Assembly: GCF_023638035.1 (NCBI RefSeq)
Contig: NZ_JAKRVX010000013.1
Span: 1 to 39,692 of the forward strand
Reading direction: 5' to 3'
Length of the DNA stretch: 39,692 nt
Origin: Natronocalculus amylovorans
Lineage (GTDB): Archaea > Halobacteriota > Halobacteria > Halobacteriales > Haloferacaceae
Below are positions 2,485-35,841 of this stretch, piece by piece. Each line of letters starts with the position of its first letter. Position 1 is the first letter of the stretch. The position numbers and the translations under genes are program-made. The notes beneath the pieces are model-generated. The model did no database searches, had not been told where the DNA came from, and saw only the letters and a list, made by a program, of their open reading frames with translations.

Positions 2485-2576
2485 GTTGGCTACTGTTTTC
2501 GTTTGTTCTCTCTTAAACTATAATAATCGATAAATACATTTCTGATATAAGTGAACGGAATTGCTATATGTCCAGG

Positions 2577-2610
2577 TAAACGACCACGGGCGCGGTGGCC
2601 CGTGGCTTTT
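2577..2610 (-). repeat. Right-end hairpin of the second tnpB element
   Basis: A perfect 8-bp stem CCACGGGC (2584-2591) / GCCCGTGG (2598-2605) lies just beyond the 3' end of the tnpB remnant. In IS200/605 elements the right end carries such hairpins, which also form the 3' part of the omegaRNA scaffold. On the reverse strand the flanking sequence past about 2577 would be the guide. Confidence 0.55.
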
Positions 2611-2624
2611 GTAGTTCTCTCACC

Positions 2625-3698
2625 CTACGTCGCAAGTACTCCACGCGAAGCGATTTCGCGGGATGAGGATGGGCGGTTTACTGAACGCCCCGACCCGGAC
2701 AGACGCACCAACCGAACTTGTGGTTGGGTTTTGTGAGTCCGGTAAGTAACCGATTCAACATCTACGCCAGCGTGTTTTGCCCACGCTCGCCACGCCACGT
2801 TCACACTCGCGTTCCGGTCAGCATGGTCTTGCTGAACCTCACACGAATCGTTCGTACACCGGAACCGCCGACCTTGGCGGTATCCACGGTGTCCACAGCA
2901 CGAGCAGGATTTCGAGTTGTACGGTGATTCGACCGTTTCACACGAAATCTGGTTCCACGTTGCTTTGTAGCGAACCTGTTGCTCAAACTTGTGGAATGGC
3001 AGCTTGTGCAGACGCCGATTCATATACGTGCCGTACTTGATGGCGTCCCGAATCCCGCTCAAGTCCTCGAACACGATACCTGGATTCGAGAACTGTTGGG
3101 CGAACTCCACCACAACCCGAGACAGCCGGTGAAGAACCCACTCAGTATAGCGTTCTTCTTTCTCCCCGAGTTGGTGGTGGATGGAGTGTTTCCCATGTTC
3201 CTGACAGCGTTTGGTGATGGTGTGGTAGCGTTGGCGTTCGGCTTTCACCGTACCGTAGTCAAGCACGAGTGTTCCGAGCGTGTCCATCGTCTCACGGTTA
3301 AGAGCGGTGAGAGCGATGTTGCGCTCGTTAATATCGACGCCGACGAGTGTGTCAGCGTCTTCCGGTTTAGGCACTTCGAGTTCTGTTTTGACCGTGACGT
3401 GTAGGTAGTACACGCCATCTCGGTACAGAAGTTCGGCCTGTCCCAACGACCACTCATTTTCAGTCAAGGTTCTGGGGCGGTGGATTCTGGAAGGTAGGAT
3501 ACTACGTCGGGACAACGGGTGCGGTATCCGAAGAAGTGGTTCAACGGTACATCGAACAGACGGAACATTAAGCGGAGTGTCGGGCTTCACCCCCGCGTGT
3601 CCGGTGACGCGGGGAACTCGCCCTTGAAACCAGTTTAGATACCTATACAGTATGTCTTCCCGGATTTCGGTCCTCCACGTTGATGATAATCCGGTCAT
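2625..3698 (-). pseudogene. tnpB: TnpB remnant, N-terminal part degraded
   Basis: The reverse-strand reading frame encodes the RuvC half of a TnpB. The RuvC-I aspartate is in LVGVDINERN, the RuvC-II glutamate in IVFEDLSGI, and the RuvC-III aspartate in DHADRNASVNVAWR. A zinc ribbon (SCSCCGHRG, then RCTNDSC) lies between the last two. The normal N-terminal ~100 residues are missing. Residues 1-30 of the open frame overlap the 5' end of a response-regulator gene in antisense, and residues about 35-75 look scrambled. I therefore regard it as a 5'-truncated remnant even though no stop interrupts the frame. If expressed, it would lack the recognition lobe. Right- and left-end hairpins at 2584-2605 and 3591-3614 bracket it. 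Confidence 0.75.
3591..3614. repeat. GC hairpin at the 5' side of the tnpB remnant
   Basis: A perfect 8-bp stem CCCCGCGT (3591-3598) / ACGCGGGG (3607-3614) with an 8-base loop lies inside the distorted 5' part of the tnpB remnant, 38 bases before the start codon of the response-regulator fragment. It is probably what remains of the element's left end. A role in transcription of the adjacent gene cannot be excluded. Confidence 0.4.
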
Positions 3699-3780
3699 TG
3701 GTGAGCTTACTACTATTTTTTAGAACGCGCAAACAGCCGATTTGCTGTCACACTGTTCTACCCTGACCTGCCTGTTATGG
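3652..3780 (+). pseudogene. Receiver-domain response regulator, 5' fragment (split by an IS)
   Basis: The ATG at 3652 opens with MSSRISVLHVDDNPVIGEL, a typical receiver start with the acidic DD pair of the phosphorylation pocket. After 23 codons the frame hits TAG at 3721. The stop falls in a run of six T (3716-3721). With one extra T the frame would continue as FLERANSRFAVTLFYPDLPVM, which is good receiver sequence. After about AVT the text jumps to PDLPVM, normally just ahead of the LFTGKG segment, so about 40 residues including the phospho-acceptor aspartate are deleted. The tnpB element then interrupts the gene; the other half resumes at 5301. Together these lesions make it a pseudogene. 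Confidence 0.8.
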
Positions 3781-3933
3781 AAGATTCAAGGCTAAAACCC
3801 CGTCCTTCAGGGCGAGGATACAGCCGACAACACTTCCACTACCCACGGTCGATGGCACGACTGGATATTCCACGAATTAAACCAAACATTTACAATAGAA
3901 AGCAGCATAACCAGTTATGGAGACGTTTCACGA

Positions 3934-5250
3934 ATGCACATCCACCGTACCTACCGAGCGAAAATCCGCAACCACTCGCAAGTGGAAAGGATGCTCGACC
4001 TGCATGGATGGAGTGCATCGAAACTGTGGAACGTTGCGAATTATCACTCCCGTCAAGTGTGGGAAGACACAGGGGAGATTCCCGACGACTCAGACTTGAA
4101 GCGTGAGTTGAAAGGCCACGACAACTACAAAGGACTGCATTCTCAGTCCAGTCAGCGCGTTCTGGAAGAACTCGCTGAAGCCTTCAACTCGTGGTACGGC
4201 AAACGCAAGTCAGACAGTCGAGCGAATCCGCCCGGCTACCGCAAAAAAAACTACTACGACGACCAAGGCCGTCGCGTCCACGAAGAACACCCGCGTTCGA
4301 CGGTGACATGGAAGCAGAAAGGCATCCGACACGACACGAAACACAACCGTGTCCGGCTCTCGAAAGGTGCGAACCACAAAGACCACCCGAGGGACTGGGA
4401 CTACATTCTCGTTGAGTACGAGACACGTCCTGAAGTCACGGTTGAGAACCTGCAACAAGTCAGAGCCGTTTACAGCAAATCAAAGGGCCAATGGGAACTT
4501 CACCTCGTCTGCAAACACGAAGTGGAGACGCCTGACGCACCCGGAAACGAGACGGTTGGTGTTGACCTCGGTATCTGCAACTTCGCAGCGGTTGCGTACA
4601 GCACCGATGACGCCGACCTGTACCCCGGCAACCGCTTGAAGCAGGATGGGTACTACTTCCCGAAGGAAATCGCCAAGTGTGATGATTCGAGTGGTTCTGA
4701 GGTGACTCGTCTGCATCACAAGTGGTCGGAGCGCCGCACCCACTTCTTCCACAGCCTCGCAAAACACATTGTTGAACAGTGTGTAGAGCGTAATGTCGGT
4801 CGCATCAATGTCGGGAAACTCGCGGGTGTCCGTGAGGATGAGAACGGCGACTCGAAAAACTGGGGGCGGCATGGAAACCTCGACTTGCACGGGTGGGCAT
4901 TCGACCGCTTCACGAAGATTCTCACTTACAAGGCGAAAGTCAAGGGAATCGAAGTCGTAGAAGTGTCTGAGCGCGACACGAGCAAGACGTGTTGCGTCTG
5001 CGGTAGAGAAGATGATAGTCAGCGTGTTGAACGCGGCTTGTACGTTTGCGAGGAGTGCGATGCAGCGTTCAACGCTGACGTGAATGGGGCGGAGAACATC
5101 CGTCTCAACTTGAATCAAAGTAACTCCGAGTCTGCATCCAATTTGGGTGGAGATAGGAGTACCGGCTGGTTGGCACAGCCCGGAGTCTACCTTTACGACT
5201 TGTCCCACGGATTCTCACCGAGGGAACAGGTGGTAGACTGCAAACCTTAA
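3934..5250 (+). CDS. tnpB: TnpB, RNA-guided nuclease of the inserted element
   Basis: A 438-residue TnpB that looks full length, with the N-terminal HIHRTYRAKIRNHSQVE and HSQSSQRVLEELAEAF segments typical of one haloarchaeal subgroup. RuvC-I is at ETVGVDLGICNFA (Asp near residue 214). The zinc ribbon is at TCCVCGRED and YVCEECD, and the RuvC-III aspartate is in FNADVNGAENI. At the RuvC-II position, where most TnpBs read VxEDLxG, this protein reads INVGKLAGVREDENG. The canonical glutamate is therefore absent, and any catalytic acid must come from the VRED segment just after it. From memory, relatives in haloarchaea share this shift. The protein should act with an omegaRNA made from the 3' end of the element. 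Confidence 0.88.
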   Translation: MHIHRTYRAKIRNHSQVERMLDLHGWSASKLWNVANYHSRQVWEDTGEIPDDSDLKRELKGHDNYKGLHSQSSQRVLEELAEAFNSWYGKRKSDSRANPPGYRKKNYYDDQGRRVHEEHPRSTVTWKQKGIRHDTKHNRVRLSKGANHKDHPRDWDYILVEYETRPEVTVENLQQVRAVYSKSKGQWELHLVCKHEVETPDAPGNETVGVDLGICNFAAVAYSTDDADLYPGNRLKQDGYYFPKEIAKCDDSSGSEVTRLHHKWSERRTHFFHSLAKHIVEQCVERNVGRINVGKLAGVREDENGDSKNWGRHGNLDLHGWAFDRFTKILTYKAKVKGIEVVEVSERDTSKTCCVCGREDDSQRVERGLYVCEECDAAFNADVNGAENIRLNLNQSNSESASNLGGDRSTGWLAQPGVYLYDLSHGFSPREQVVDCKP

Positions 5251-5299
5251 TATCCCAACGCTCGGGAATCCTCGCCCTTCAGGGCGGGGAGGATGTCAA
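5251..5299 (+). repeat. Right end / omegaRNA 3' hairpin of the inserted tnpB element
   Basis: Immediately after the tnpB stop lies an 8-bp stem CCTCGCCC (5270-5277) / GGGCGGGG (5282-5289) with loop TTCA, followed by AGGATGTCA. By analogy with characterised IS200/605 elements this is the right end and the terminal part of the omegaRNA. The guide would then start around 5300 inside the interrupted receiver gene. The RNA itself is inferred. Confidence 0.5.
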
Positions 5300-5300
5300 A

Positions 5301-6209
5301 CTGTTTACCGGAAAGGGCTCAGAAGAGGTTGCAAGCGATGCAATTTCCGCTGGCGTCACAGACTACCTTCAGAAGGGAACAAACGTTGAACAGTACACTG
5401 TTCTTGCAAATCGGGTCCAGAACGCAGTTCAATCTTATCGGTCCCAACAGCGCTTAGAAGAACGAGAAAAACAGCTTTCGTTATTTTTTGAGGAGTCCCC
5501 AATAGGTGTTATCGAATGGGACACAGCGTACAAACTTGTCCGAATCAACAAAGCAGCGCGAAATATTTTTGCCTATACAACTGACGAACTACAGGGTGCA
5601 GATTGGGAGAAGGTTCTGCCACCACTTGAGCGCAATCATGTCACTGGCGTCTTTGCATCGCTACAGTCCGATCACCAACAGAGACAGAGTATCAATCTGA
5701 ATCTCACAAAAGGAGGGAGTGAGATCATGTGTGAGTGGCATAATCACGCACTCACAAATGCTGAAGGTGACCGTATTGCAATCTACTCACATGTTTATGA
5801 CATAACAGATAATCTCGAAAATAAACGTCAATTAGAGGGATTGGTCGATCGGCTTCCCGGAATTGTCTACCGGCATCAAAATGAACCTGGATGGCCACTT
5901 GCGTTTGTCAAAGGATCGTGTGTGGAGCTAACCGGATATACAAGCGAGGAGCTAGCAGACGAGGTTCTGTTGGCTGAAGAAATCATTCATCCTGATGATC
6001 GTACATATGTCCAAACCGAGACGGAACAGTCACTTGCAGAACACCAGTCCTACAACCTCACATATCGAATCCGTATGAAATCCGGTGTGACAAAATGGAT
6101 CTGGGAGTGTGGTGGTAAGGTGACGCTTTCAAATGGTGACAGCGTGCTTGAGGGGTTTCTTATCAGCGTGGATACGGTTGATCTCGATCGCCTTTCACAG
6201 TTTTCTTAG
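5301..6209 (+). pseudogene. Receiver-PAS-PAS protein, 3' fragment (split by an IS)
   Basis: The frame is open from the IS junction to the TAG at 6207. It begins with the C-terminal part of a receiver domain (LFTGKGSEEVASDAISAG, then DYLQKGT with the conserved lysine). A coiled linker and two PAS domains follow: FFEESPIGVIEWD...AYTTDELQG, and LVDRLPGIVYRH...VELTGYTSEELAD...IHPDDR. No histidine-kinase domain follows, so the intact gene was probably a receiver-PAS signalling protein or a kinase that had already lost its end. The fragment lacks a natural start; an internal ATG at 5727 could give a 160-residue product with the second PAS domain. It converges on htpX with 17 bases between them. Confidence 0.8.
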
Positions 6210-33482: not shown

Positions 33483-35219
33483 CTATTTTCCGCAGTAAAC
33501 AGCAGTCTGCTTAACAAAGCGAGACGTGCCGTGTGTCGCTGGGCTTGACACTGAAACAGGTTTACTGCTATCGTTTTTCGTCTCTGTCGGGGTGACGGCG
33601 GGCGCTATCAAGCACGACCCACCACCAGCAGCCACCTCACTCGACTGTTCAGTAAACACGATTGGCGCTTCACCAAACGTGAGACGCGGGCCAGCGGAAC
33701 GGCTTGCTGGCACGATTTCAACATCTCCCGTATAGGAAGACGTGAAATCGCGTTCCAGTGTTGCCGTTTCGCTGAAGAACACGCGGGCCACGTTGACAGC
33801 ACCAACGTAGTCCCGGTCGGCTTGATACCCACACCGTGCGTTGTCACAGCGGAAGTGACTGCCCCACCACACTTCAAACGAGTGGTCAGGTGACTTCGTA
33901 GTGTGCCCCGTCGCGCCACACCGAGGGCACGACCGCGACGTGTTACCCGGATGCACTCGCTCAACGTGCAGTCCAGCGATGTCTGCCCGGTACTCGATTT
34001 TCGAGATAATGTCTCGACGCGCCCATGAGGAGAGTTCCCACGACAACTGACCTTCACCACGAGGAGGTGACAGACTCCGCAAGTCTTCGTGGACGATTGC
34101 ATCCACGTCGTACACCAGCGCGAGTGCGAGGACTTGGTTAGCTACGTCGTGTACGAGTTGCTCTCGCTTGTGGCGAATCTTGTTGTTCACGCGCCTGTAC
34201 TCCGCGTGAACCTGTGTGAACGAGTCTGTGTGGTCACGCCCGTTTCGACGCAGAGACGCGAGTTTTGAGTTGAGCTGATTACGTTCACGAGCGAGATTCC
34301 GCATCCGTTTGCGCTCCGTATTCTGAATGAAATACGGGACAGAGAGTTGTTCTCCATCTTCGTTCACCACAACAGCAGTAGCGTCTTTTCGGAGCCCACC
34401 GTCAATTGACAAGACGGTTTCCACGTCGTCAGATTTCTCGGCGTGTTCGACTTCGATGGGGAACGAGAGTTCGTGATAGTCGTCCCCGGTTTTTGTTTGT
34501 GTAGGGTGGAACGAGGGGGCGGAGAGGCTTCCGTGTTCAAGCAATTCATGGAATGCTTCGTAGCCTTCGAGGGTGTGTTCTGTCCACGTCCAATCACCTC
34601 TTGTTTCAGGTTCGAGCGTATCAGGTGTTTTGAGTTTGACTGTAAGTATCTGTGTGTCTTCTTCGTACTCGTATTTCACCGCCTGTCCTGATGTGGGGCC
34701 ATCGTCTGCGGAATACGGCAACACGCCCTTCGAGTACGTTGGGCAGTCCTGCATATCGAAATACGATTCAGGGAAGCGACCGTGTCGGTCGTAGTACGAG
34801 TTGAGTTGTCCGATAAGCAGGTCAACGTACCCTGACTTGAGATATTCTTCTGAGTCACAGAGTTGTTCTTTAATTATCCGAGTATGGATTCGTCGAATCT
34901 TGTGGTTGGGGAGTACAGATTGGATAGTTTCGAAGGCTCCTCGTTTGTCGGCGTGGCTCCGAAGCGTCTCCCCGACTTTCTGCATCACACACCGCTTGTA
35001 CCGACTCGGAAGGTACAGGTCAAAATCATCGAACGCTTCGCTCTCGTCAAAGTATTTCCACGCCTGATACGAGAAATCGTCAATCCCTGTGAGATGTTCA
35101 GTCGTCCAGTATCGCTCGATAAGCGTGTTTGCAACCGTAATTGTGAGCATGTCTAACCGATCGTGACGCTCTCGCTCCTCAAACGGGAGGCGAATTGGAA
35201 GCGAGAGATGGCTACTCAT
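33483..35219 (-). CDS. tnpB: TnpB of the IS607 element, long form
   Basis: A 578-residue TnpB. Residues 1-270 form the recognition part, starting MSSHLSLPIRLPFEERERHDRL. The RuvC-I aspartate is in VLSIDGGLRKDAT, the RuvC-II glutamate in AIVHEDLRSLSPPRGEG, and the RuvC-III aspartate in YQADRDYVGAVNVARV near residue 470. The zinc ribbon is at RSCPRCGATG and FRCDNARCG. All catalytic acids are in place, so it is probably active. A tail of about 105 residues of low complexity (PASRSAGPRLTFGEAP, AAGGGSCLIAPAVTPTETKND) follows RuvC-III. In this family the omegaRNA overlaps the tnpB 3' end, so the tail may be a by-product of RNA coding. The stop TAG is the last codon before kinase sequence begins in the same frame. 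Confidence 0.9.
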   Translation of the reverse strand: MSSHLSLPIRLPFEERERHDRLDMLTITVANTLIERYWTTEHLTGIDDFSYQAWKYFDESEAFDDFDLYLPSRYKRCVMQKVGETLRSHADKRGAFETIQSVLPNHKIRRIHTRIIKEQLCDSEEYLKSGYVDLLIGQLNSYYDRHGRFPESYFDMQDCPTYSKGVLPYSADDGPTSGQAVKYEYEEDTQILTVKLKTPDTLEPETRGDWTWTEHTLEGYEAFHELLEHGSLSAPSFHPTQTKTGDDYHELSFPIEVEHAEKSDDVETVLSIDGGLRKDATAVVVNEDGEQLSVPYFIQNTERKRMRNLARERNQLNSKLASLRRNGRDHTDSFTQVHAEYRRVNNKIRHKREQLVHDVANQVLALALVYDVDAIVHEDLRSLSPPRGEGQLSWELSSWARRDIISKIEYRADIAGLHVERVHPGNTSRSCPRCGATGHTTKSPDHSFEVWWGSHFRCDNARCGYQADRDYVGAVNVARVFFSETATLERDFTSSYTGDVEIVPASRSAGPRLTFGEAPIVFTEQSSEVAAGGGSCLIAPAVTPTETKNDSSKPVSVSSPATHGTSRFVKQTAVYCGK

Positions 35220-35841
35220 CGGTTTCCACCTCGGATTCTACGGTTTCAACGATGCGCTTGCGTTTCGAGGAACGCATCCCATACAGTTTGCCTGCGAAGC
35301 TGGCAACGAGTTGCAAAAGGTCGTCAACGAGTTCTTCATGTGCAGTTTTGTCAGTTTCCTCATTGATAACCGTAATTTCGATTCCGTACTGGTCGAGGAG
35401 GCGTTCGAGATAGGTGAATCCAAATCTGGTGAGTCGGTCTTGGTATGTGACGAGGACGCGCCCATAGTCGGCGGTCTCTGCATCGTCCAAGAGTTTGTTC
35501 AGTCCACGACGATTCTCGTTGAGGCCACTTCCCACGTCGGAGTATTTATTTTCGATACTCCATCCGTGGTTGTGTGCGTATTCAGTAAGGGAGTTGAGTT
35601 GGCGGTCAAGGTCGCCATCTTGTTTCTGAGTGTGTCCTGAAACACGCGCATAGATGGCGACTTTATCGGTTCTCCGTGATGGCTCGCCAGTGAGTCGTTG
35701 GAGTTCGGTATGTGGAATCCGTCGATGCCCGCCTGGAGTTCGTGAATACGATATTTGGTCTTCTCGGCACCACTTTTTGACGGTTTCCGGGTGGACTCCA
35801 AGTTCGTCTGCGAACGCTCCAATGGAGTACACCTTTGTCAT
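35212..35841 (-). CDS. tnpA: IS607 TnpA serine recombinase with MerR-type HTH
   Basis: A complete 209-residue IS607 transposase. Residues 1-50 are a MerR-like DNA-binding domain: YSIGAFADELGVHPETVKKWCREDQISYSRTPGGHRRIP. The serine-recombinase catalytic domain follows, with the nucleophile in VAIYARVSGHTQKQDGDLDRQ, the DVGSGLNENRRGL segment and the arginine motif YQDRLTRFGF. The C-terminus is helical with FAGKLYGMRSSKRKR. All the motifs needed for strand exchange are present, so the enzyme is probably active. It overlaps tnpB by 8 bases. Confidence 0.92.
   Translation of the reverse strand: MTKVYSIGAFADELGVHPETVKKWCREDQISYSRTPGGHRRIPHTELQRLTGEPSRRTDKVAIYARVSGHTQKQDGDLDRQLNSLTEYAHNHGWSIENKYSDVGSGLNENRRGLNKLLDDAETADYGRVLVTYQDRLTRFGFTYLERLLDQYGIEITVINEETDKTAHEELVDDLLQLVASFAGKLYGMRSSKRKRIVETVESEVETDE

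What the first reader, a model, noticed from the sequence alone, without database searches (positions are those of the whole stretch)
3934..5250. TnpB without the canonical RuvC-II glutamate
At the VxEDLxG position this protein reads INVGKLAGVREDENG, while RuvC-I and RuvC-III aspartates and the zinc ribbon are intact. Either the acid is supplied by the following VRED segment (rearranged active site) or the protein is nuclease-dead and works as an RNA-guided binding protein. Both possibilities have precedents among TnpB relatives, and the other TnpBs here with visible RuvC regions (2625-3698, 33483-35219) have the normal glutamate.
Basis: partly seen in the sequence, partly recalled or inferred. 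Interest (0 to 1): 0.55.

Follow-up and report, generated by a model that had tools for sequence, protein, structure and literature searches.

The report
TnpB with relocated active-site glutamate
This haloarchaeal transposon protein lacks the usual RuvC-II glutamate but has a conserved glutamate at a second, already described position just before its zinc finger, so it is most likely an ordinary RNA-guided DNA nuclease rather than a dead or newly rearranged one.

Summary
The 438-aa TnpB at 3934-5250 has Gly294-Lys295 where canonical TnpBs have Glu-Asp. The missing acid is most likely not "VRED" (E301/D302) but E346 (codon 4969-4971), which sits exactly at the published alternative RuvC-II position, E-x6-CxxC, of Ealt TnpBs and Fanzors (Yoon et al. 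2023, PMC10711439). G294, E346 and D211 occur in 121 of 121 family rows. Of 142 aligned TnpB frames, 125 have Glu only at the alternative column, 14 only at the canonical one, none at both, 1 at neither, 2 are gapped. In 41 distant relatives (22-33% identity) E346 is kept in 38; E301 is never E. An AlphaFold2 model puts E346 right after strand 340-345, before the zinc ribbon. The locus looks like a complete tnpB-only element, 3779-5299, with TTAT on its left, an omegaRNA resembling Rfam sot0042 with covarying pairs, and a variable guide at its right, inside a decayed sensor-kinase gene. Best reading: RNA-guided nuclease of the known D-phi-G Ealt class. Cleavage is inferred, not shown.

The parts
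3775..3778 (+). TTAT left-flank tetranucleotide (presumed TAM / insertion target)
   Evidence: TTAT lies within 24 nt upstream of the left-end anchor in 43 of the 44 copies where the anchor was found, of 79 examined; at the same point 3 of 10 homologous kinases read TTAT, the rest TCGT, TCAT or TCTT
3779..5299 (+). tnpB-only IS element (IS200/IS605, IS1341-type), left end to right end
   Evidence: conservation between copies starts just after TTAT and stops after GATGTCAA (a few copies such as L084 and L085 have an altered right end); no Y1 transposase match inside
3934..5250 (+). TnpB, 438 aa, alternative-Glu (Ealt) RuvC
4564..4566 (+). RuvC-I catalytic Asp D211 (VDLG, D-phi-G type)
   Evidence: 121 of 121 family rows, 41 of 41 distant relatives
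4813..4818 (+). G294-K295 in place of the canonical RuvC-II Glu-Asp
   Evidence: G294 in 121 of 121 family rows, 41 of 41 distant relatives
4834..4839 (+).
   Evidence: E301: E in 108 and D in 10 of 121 in the family; E in 0 of 41 distant relatives
4969..4971 (+). E346, alternative RuvC-II Glu (ERDTSKTCCVC = E-x6-CxxC)
   Evidence: 121 of 121, 38 of 41; matches the Ealt expression of PMC10711439
4990..5058 (+). zinc ribbon C353-x2-C356 ... C372-x2-C375
   Evidence: Pfam PF07282 residues 323-389, sequence
5077..5079 (+). RuvC-III catalytic Asp D382 (NADVNGAEN)
   Evidence: 117 of 121 family rows (2 gaps, 1 N, 1 A)
5118..5299 (+). omegaRNA scaffold (sot0042-like) overlapping the 3' end of tnpB
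   Evidence: RF02656 at 5118-5290, full model, 84.7 bits (gathering 88), E 2.5e-22; 14 of 49 predicted pairs show double-sided changes in 38 copies
5300..5319 (+). guide region (first ~20 nt right of the element; exact length not determined)
   Evidence: sequence differs between copies immediately after GATGTCAA
3652..3778 (+). decayed 5' remnant of the interrupted sensor-kinase gene (receiver-domain start)
   Evidence: translation MSSRISVLHVDDNPVIGELTTIF then stop
5300..6209 (+). 3' remnant of the interrupted kinase gene (receiver end and PAS-like part; open frame from 5301)
   Evidence: translation LFTGKGSEEVASDAISAGVTDYLQKG...; domain names by inspection

Best explanation
This is a TnpB RNA-guided DNA endonuclease of the already described alternative-glutamate (Ealt), D-phi-G class, carried by a tnpB-only IS200/IS605 element of haloarchaea. 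Its RuvC catalytic triad is D211-E346-D382. The RuvC-II glutamate comes from the loop after the strand at 340-345, just before the zinc ribbon, instead of from the end of the preceding strand (288-295). The 3' end of tnpB doubles as the omegaRNA (sot0042-like). The RNA scaffold ends at the right end of the element and the flanking host sequence becomes the guide, so TnpB would cut the empty copy of its own insertion site next to TTAT and so help the element persist. Shown here: sequence conservation, mutual exclusion of the two Glu positions, RNA family resemblance and covariation, element ends, insertion site. Inferred: metal binding by E346, TAM function of TTAT, cleavage, and the persistence role (reported for other TnpBs; recalled).
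For: E346 fits the published Ealt expression ExxxxxxCxxC (PMC10711439: passages, section 23 read). G294, D211 and E346 in 121 of 121 family rows; 125 rows with Glu only at the alternative column, 14 only at the canonical one, 0 both, 1 neither, 2 gapped, of 142. E346 in 38 of 41 distant relatives, G294 and D211 in 41 of 41. E346 is kept in three own-genome TnpBs (L005, L006, L009) of another lineage, 29-31% identical over the RuvC part; model (pLDDT 77.2, pTM 0.65) with strand 288-295 at the canonical site and strand 340-345 ending just before E346; PMC11423790 (passages) places the catalytic Glu in the loop between the fifth strand and the TNB domain; nearest solved folds include Cas12f, ISDra2 TnpB, ISFba1 TnpB and mimivirus Fanzor2; omegaRNA match and covariation; element ends, TTAT, variable guide.
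Against: No coordinates of the model were available to me, so I measured no active-site distances; placement of E346 rests on sequence, secondary structure and published descriptions of relatives. The omegaRNA match is just below Rfam's gathering score (84.7 against 88). 3 of 41 distant relatives lack E346: two read P and look canonical with a poorly aligned RuvC-II part, one reads K. The acid of VRED is conserved as E or D in 118 of 121 family rows, so an accessory role is not excluded. TTAT stands at the insertion point in only 3 of 10 uninterrupted kinases shown and no exact empty site was found. PMC12558985 (passages) says that H. [quoted passage not shown] No cleavage data.
Confidence: 0.9

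Rival explanations
1. The acid is supplied by E301 or D302 of the VRED segment right after the canonical position (first reader, option 1).
For: Position 301 is acidic in 118 of 121 family rows (E 108, D 10); R300 and E301 are invariant in the ten-sequence alignment.
Against: E301 is E in 0 of 41 distant relatives that share the loss of the canonical Glu (D in 10) and G/Q/K in three family rows, while E346 is in 121 of 121 and 38 of 41. In the model residue 301 follows strand 288-295 in a low-confidence stretch (block 301-310 pLDDT 58).
Confidence: 0.04
2. The protein is nuclease-dead and works as an RNA-guided DNA-binding protein (first reader, option 2; compare TldR, recalled).
For: The missing canonical Glu alone.
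Against: All three acids of an Ealt triad are kept (D211 121 of 121, E346 121 of 121, D382 117 of 121 with two gaps, one N, one A). The family is multicopy in single genomes (for example several copies at 84-86% identity to the window protein in G135 and G063), and the guide region differs from copy to copy, unlike a domesticated regulator with a fixed target.
Confidence: 0.04
3. The gene is a decaying pseudogene and the substitution is drift.
For: The host kinase gene is decayed and the neighbouring TnpB at 2625-3698 matches only positions 163-388 of the family profile.
Against: Full-length open frame, 93% identity to a protein in another genus, conserved residues intact, full-length omegaRNA match and ends.
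Confidence: 0.02

Closest known systems
Ealt TnpBs of the D-phi-G clade (Yoon et al. 2023, PMC10711439)
   Same: Glu six residues before the zinc-finger CxxC, no canonical Glu, Asp-hydrophobic-Gly at RuvC-I (DLG)
   Different: No feature found that takes it out of the class; a word search of that paper for 'archaea' gave no occurrence in the main text
Fanzors and pro-Fanzors (DPG, Ealt)
   Same: Same Glu relocation; fold similar to mimivirus Fanzor2 9b0l (Z 20.2, rmsd 4.1, 351 aligned)
   Different: RuvC-I is DLG, not DPG; archaeal tnpB-only element
ISDra2 TnpB and Cas12f (canonical Glu)
   Same: Overall fold (ISDra2 8exa Z 22.5, rmsd 4.2, 312 aligned; AsCas12f 7wju Z 25.4, rmsd 4.7, 361 aligned)
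   Different: AsCas12f has the canonical Glu (MEDL) and DPQYTS at the column of E346 (alignments)
Haloarchaeal sot0042 sotRNA / omegaRNA elements (RF02656; Gomes-Filho et al. 2015 as cited in PMC12558985, passages)
   Same: Full-length match of the RNA model at the 3' end of tnpB; two ~60% paralogs in the same genome pass the gathering score (102.5 and 163.6 bits)
   Different: The window copy (84.7 bits) and 16 of 16 closer relatives given to stay below the gathering score; another close copy (at the place of L152) passes at 88.2, so the difference is of degree

Membership tests
TnpB (RNA-guided endonuclease family) | TnpB family profile over its cut-off | tested here: met
   NF040570 204.7 bits, cut-off 100
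Ealt TnpB, D-phi-G clade | no Glu at the canonical RuvC-II position | tested here: met
   G294
Ealt TnpB, D-phi-G clade | Glu followed by six residues and the zinc-finger CxxC, then RuvC-III Asp | tested here: met
   E346-RDTSKT-C353CVC356, D382 (definition)
Ealt TnpB, D-phi-G clade | D-hydrophobic-G at RuvC-I | tested here: met
   D211-L-G
Ealt TnpB, D-phi-G clade | place in the published Ealt clade of a TnpB tree | not tested
   no tree was built
Ealt TnpB, D-phi-G clade | alternative Glu at the metal site | not testable with these tools
   model coordinates not available; secondary structure only
pro-Fanzor / Fanzor | DPG at RuvC-I | tested here: not met
   DLG; P at that place in none of the 59 rows printed
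TldR-like nuclease-dead TnpB regulators | loss of RuvC catalytic acids without replacement (recalled definition) | tested here: not met
   D211, E346, D382 retained
omegaRNA family sot0042 (RF02656) | score at or above the gathering cut-off | tested here: not met
   84.7 against 88 bits, though E 2.5e-22 over the full model
IS200/IS605 element, IS1341 type | tnpB without tnpA, shared ends, insertion next to a fixed short motif (recalled definition) | tested here: met
   no Y1 transposase match in 3779-5299; ends and TTAT

The most novel reading that the evidence does not exclude
The haloarchaeal branch keeps an additional acidic residue at position 301 (E or D in 118 of 121 rows), a few residues after an invariant G294, that assists the E346-based site (for example a second metal or the lid), giving a four-acid variant of the Ealt active site adapted to high salt.
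Probability: 0.07. Interest if true: 0.4.

Novelty: new member of a known kind. Interest (0 to 1): 0.2.

Why it matters
It removes a false lead (a dead or newly rearranged TnpB) and points to a useful fact: haloarchaeal elements with sot0042-type omegaRNAs, a family first found as transcripts in Halobacterium salinarum (PMC12558985, passages), carry the Ealt active site in the copies examined here. Genetically tractable haloarchaea could therefore be used to ask what the Glu relocation does to target and trans cleavage, a question raised for pro-Fanzors and Fanzors in PMC10711439.

Tried and rejected
Explanations considered and dropped: VRED as the replacement acid; nuclease-dead regulator; pseudogene (see rivals).

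A first regular expression for the zinc ribbon was too strict and printed only three canonical proteins; it was replaced by an HMM search and alignment. The default Rfam scan did not list the omegaRNA of this gene, which lies just under the gathering score; the relaxed scan did. Mimivirus Fanzor2 did not come among the five alignments that the tool prints, so identity of E346 with the Fanzor2 Glu was not shown residue by residue. No exact empty site (TTAT plus 18 nt of guide) was found in 147 genomes, the own one included; the best places have 2 mismatches, those with 2 mismatches that I compared lie in homologous kinase genes, and the window's own right flank is itself one of the 2-mismatch hits. 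My first reading of the left kinase remnant as one open frame was wrong: the frame is broken. For the omegaRNA alignment I used 38 of the 42 copies; L084 and L085 (altered right ends) and L102 and L107 (near duplicates) were left out. For the protein alignment A2 I chose 60 of the 160 loci and lost two to stop codons. Three papers that I looked for by DOI are not held (the PNAS 2023 TnpB/Cas12 classification, a 2023 Science Advances Fanzor paper, and the TldR paper); what I say of TldR is recalled. Searches for print on haloarchaeal TnpB active sites listed nothing on the point in their titles or abstracts, within a library that lacks most subscription papers; of the listed papers I opened only PMC12558985 (passages).

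Full report
What was claimed.

Observation. The 438-aa protein is a TnpB by Pfam and NCBIfam. In an alignment of 142 unique TnpB-related reading frames from the own genome and relatives, the canonical Glu column holds G294 and the next K295. The window's two other TnpBs have the canonical Glu (VFEDL, VHEDL). It is a family trait: 121 of 121 rows scoring over 300 bits against the family profile have Gly there. The rows include the window protein and, in L010, a truncated second copy of it. K295 is one of several residues found at the next place (D 67, K 30, N 14, E 7, R/S/T one each).

Where the acid is. Yoon et al. 2023 (PMC10711439; passages, section 23) separate TnpBs into those with a canonical Glu about 50 residues before the zinc finger and those with an alternative Glu six residues before it (expression ExxxxxxCxxC). 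The alternative group splits into D-phi-G and DPG (Fanzor-like) clades. The window protein reads E346-RDTSKT-C353-CV-C356: an exact match, with DLG at RuvC-I. E346 is present in 121 of 121 family rows. Over all 142 rows, 125 have Glu only at the alternative column, 14 only at the canonical column, none at both, one at neither (L156, an opposite-strand frame that aligns poorly) and two are gapped. One of the 125, L004, matches the family profile only in its C-terminal part (positions 315-433), so its canonical column is not reliable. Three further TnpBs of the own genome (L005, L006, L009), 29-31% identical over the RuvC part, show the same pattern.

Distant relatives. In 41 proteins from viral contigs, 22-33% identical, G294 and D211 are kept in 41 of 41 and E346 in 38. 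The exceptions are L209 and L217, which read P and look canonical, with a poorly aligned RuvC-II, and L193, which reads K. E301 is E in none of the 41 (D in 10). These 41 and 17 haloarchaeal proteins are 58 of 60 loci that I chose from the 160; two were lost to stop codons (L158 haloarchaeal, L220 viral). The loci were found with motifs in the N-terminal and RuvC-III regions (ASKLWNV, NADVNGA), not around E346.

Structure. The AlphaFold2 model (mean pLDDT 77.2, pTM 0.65) has a strand at 288-295, which ends at the canonical site, and a strand at 340-345, which ends just before E346 and is followed by the zinc ribbon. A Fanzor structure paper describes the catalytic Glu in the loop between the fifth strand and the TNB domain (PMC11423790, passages; it says so for Fanzor, TnpB and Cas12a alike). 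Solved folds near the model are AsCas12f (7wju: Z 25.4, rmsd 4.7, 361 aligned), ISDra2 TnpB (8exa: Z 22.5, rmsd 4.2, 312), ISFba1 TnpB (8iaz: Z 22.4, rmsd 4.3, 339) and mimivirus Fanzor2 (9b0l: Z 20.2, rmsd 4.1, 351). AsCas12f has the canonical Glu (MEDL) and DPQYTS at the column of E346 (alignments). I had no coordinates and measured no distances.

The element. Copies share sequence from just after TTAT on the left to GATGTCAA on the right, then diverge; a few, such as L084 and L085, have an altered right end. An anchor just inside the left end was found in 44 of 79 copies examined (window included); TTAT stood within 24 nt upstream in 43 of the 44. The right-end motif or a near variant was found in 73 of 81. 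In the window this gives 3779-5299, with TTAT at 3775-3778 and the guide from 5300. The flanks belong to a decayed sensor-kinase gene, with a receiver-domain start before and its end after the element. Ten related kinases align across the same point; 3 of them read TTAT there, the others TCGT, TCAT or TCTT. No Y1 transposase match lies inside the element; the genome has four long Y1 matches, one of them with an internal stop, and one remnant at 3455-3559 of the window.

The RNA. A relaxed Rfam scan finds sot0042 (RF02656) at 5118-5290, full model, 84.7 bits against a gathering score of 88, E 2.5e-22. The two ~60% paralogs L002 and L003 pass at 102.5 and 163.6 bits; the other 18 of the 20 loci given in the same call do not (16 closer relatives, and L005 and L006 of the other Ealt lineage). 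Whole-genome scans of three relatives list matches from 24.6 to 97.7 bits, among them one at the place of L152, a close copy, that passes at 88.2. An alignment of 38 of the 42 copies gives a consensus fold with 49 pairs, 14 with at least one change on both sides that keeps the pair, although most of this stretch is also coding.

Mechanism. Most likely the protein binds its own mRNA-derived omegaRNA, recognises TTAT next to the guide-matched site and cuts with D211-E346-D382, which would favour persistence of the element. The triad is strongly supported by sequence; metal binding, TAM role and cleavage are inferred. VRED keeps an acid in 118 of 121 family rows, so a supporting role is possible but not needed. 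A dead protein is unlikely: the acids are retained, the family is multicopy in single genomes and guides differ between copies.

Against. No exact empty site was found in 147 genomes, own included; TnpB proteins of H. salinarum are reported as barely or not detected by mass spectrometry (PMC12558985, passages); and the RNA match is under the curated threshold.

Verdict. A new member of a known kind: an Ealt, D-phi-G TnpB.

Noticed in passing
window 2556-3698 (-): A second TnpB on the opposite strand with its own omegaRNA (RF02657 sot2652, 119.9 bits at 2556-2746) and a Y1 TnpA remnant at 3455-3559. It matches only positions 163-388 of the family profile, and the start of the listed ORF overlaps the kinase remnant, so its N-terminal part seems to be missing.
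   Followed up: partly
window 33483-35841 (-): What looks by eye like an IS607-type pair: a recombinase with an HTH start (35212-35841; not tested by a family search) and a canonical-Glu TnpB (33483-35219).
   Followed up: no
L130 (RuvC-III): One family member reads FNANVNGAEN, Asn for the RuvC-III Asp, the same substitution reported as active in GtFz1 Fanzor (PMC11423790, passages).
   Followed up: no
window 5161-5309 (+): The omegaRNA also matches HgcC (RF00062) weakly (24.1 bits, gathering 50, E 0.0016): the archaeal HgcC family may be related to TnpB omegaRNAs.
   Followed up: no
L167-L243 (viral contigs): 37 of 41 distant relatives from viral contigs lack the first zinc-ribbon cysteine, yet nearly all of these keep the alternative Glu (ESYTSK-like motif), so the Ealt site seems not to depend on the zinc finger. 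The published expression ExxxxxxCxxC would miss them.
   Followed up: partly
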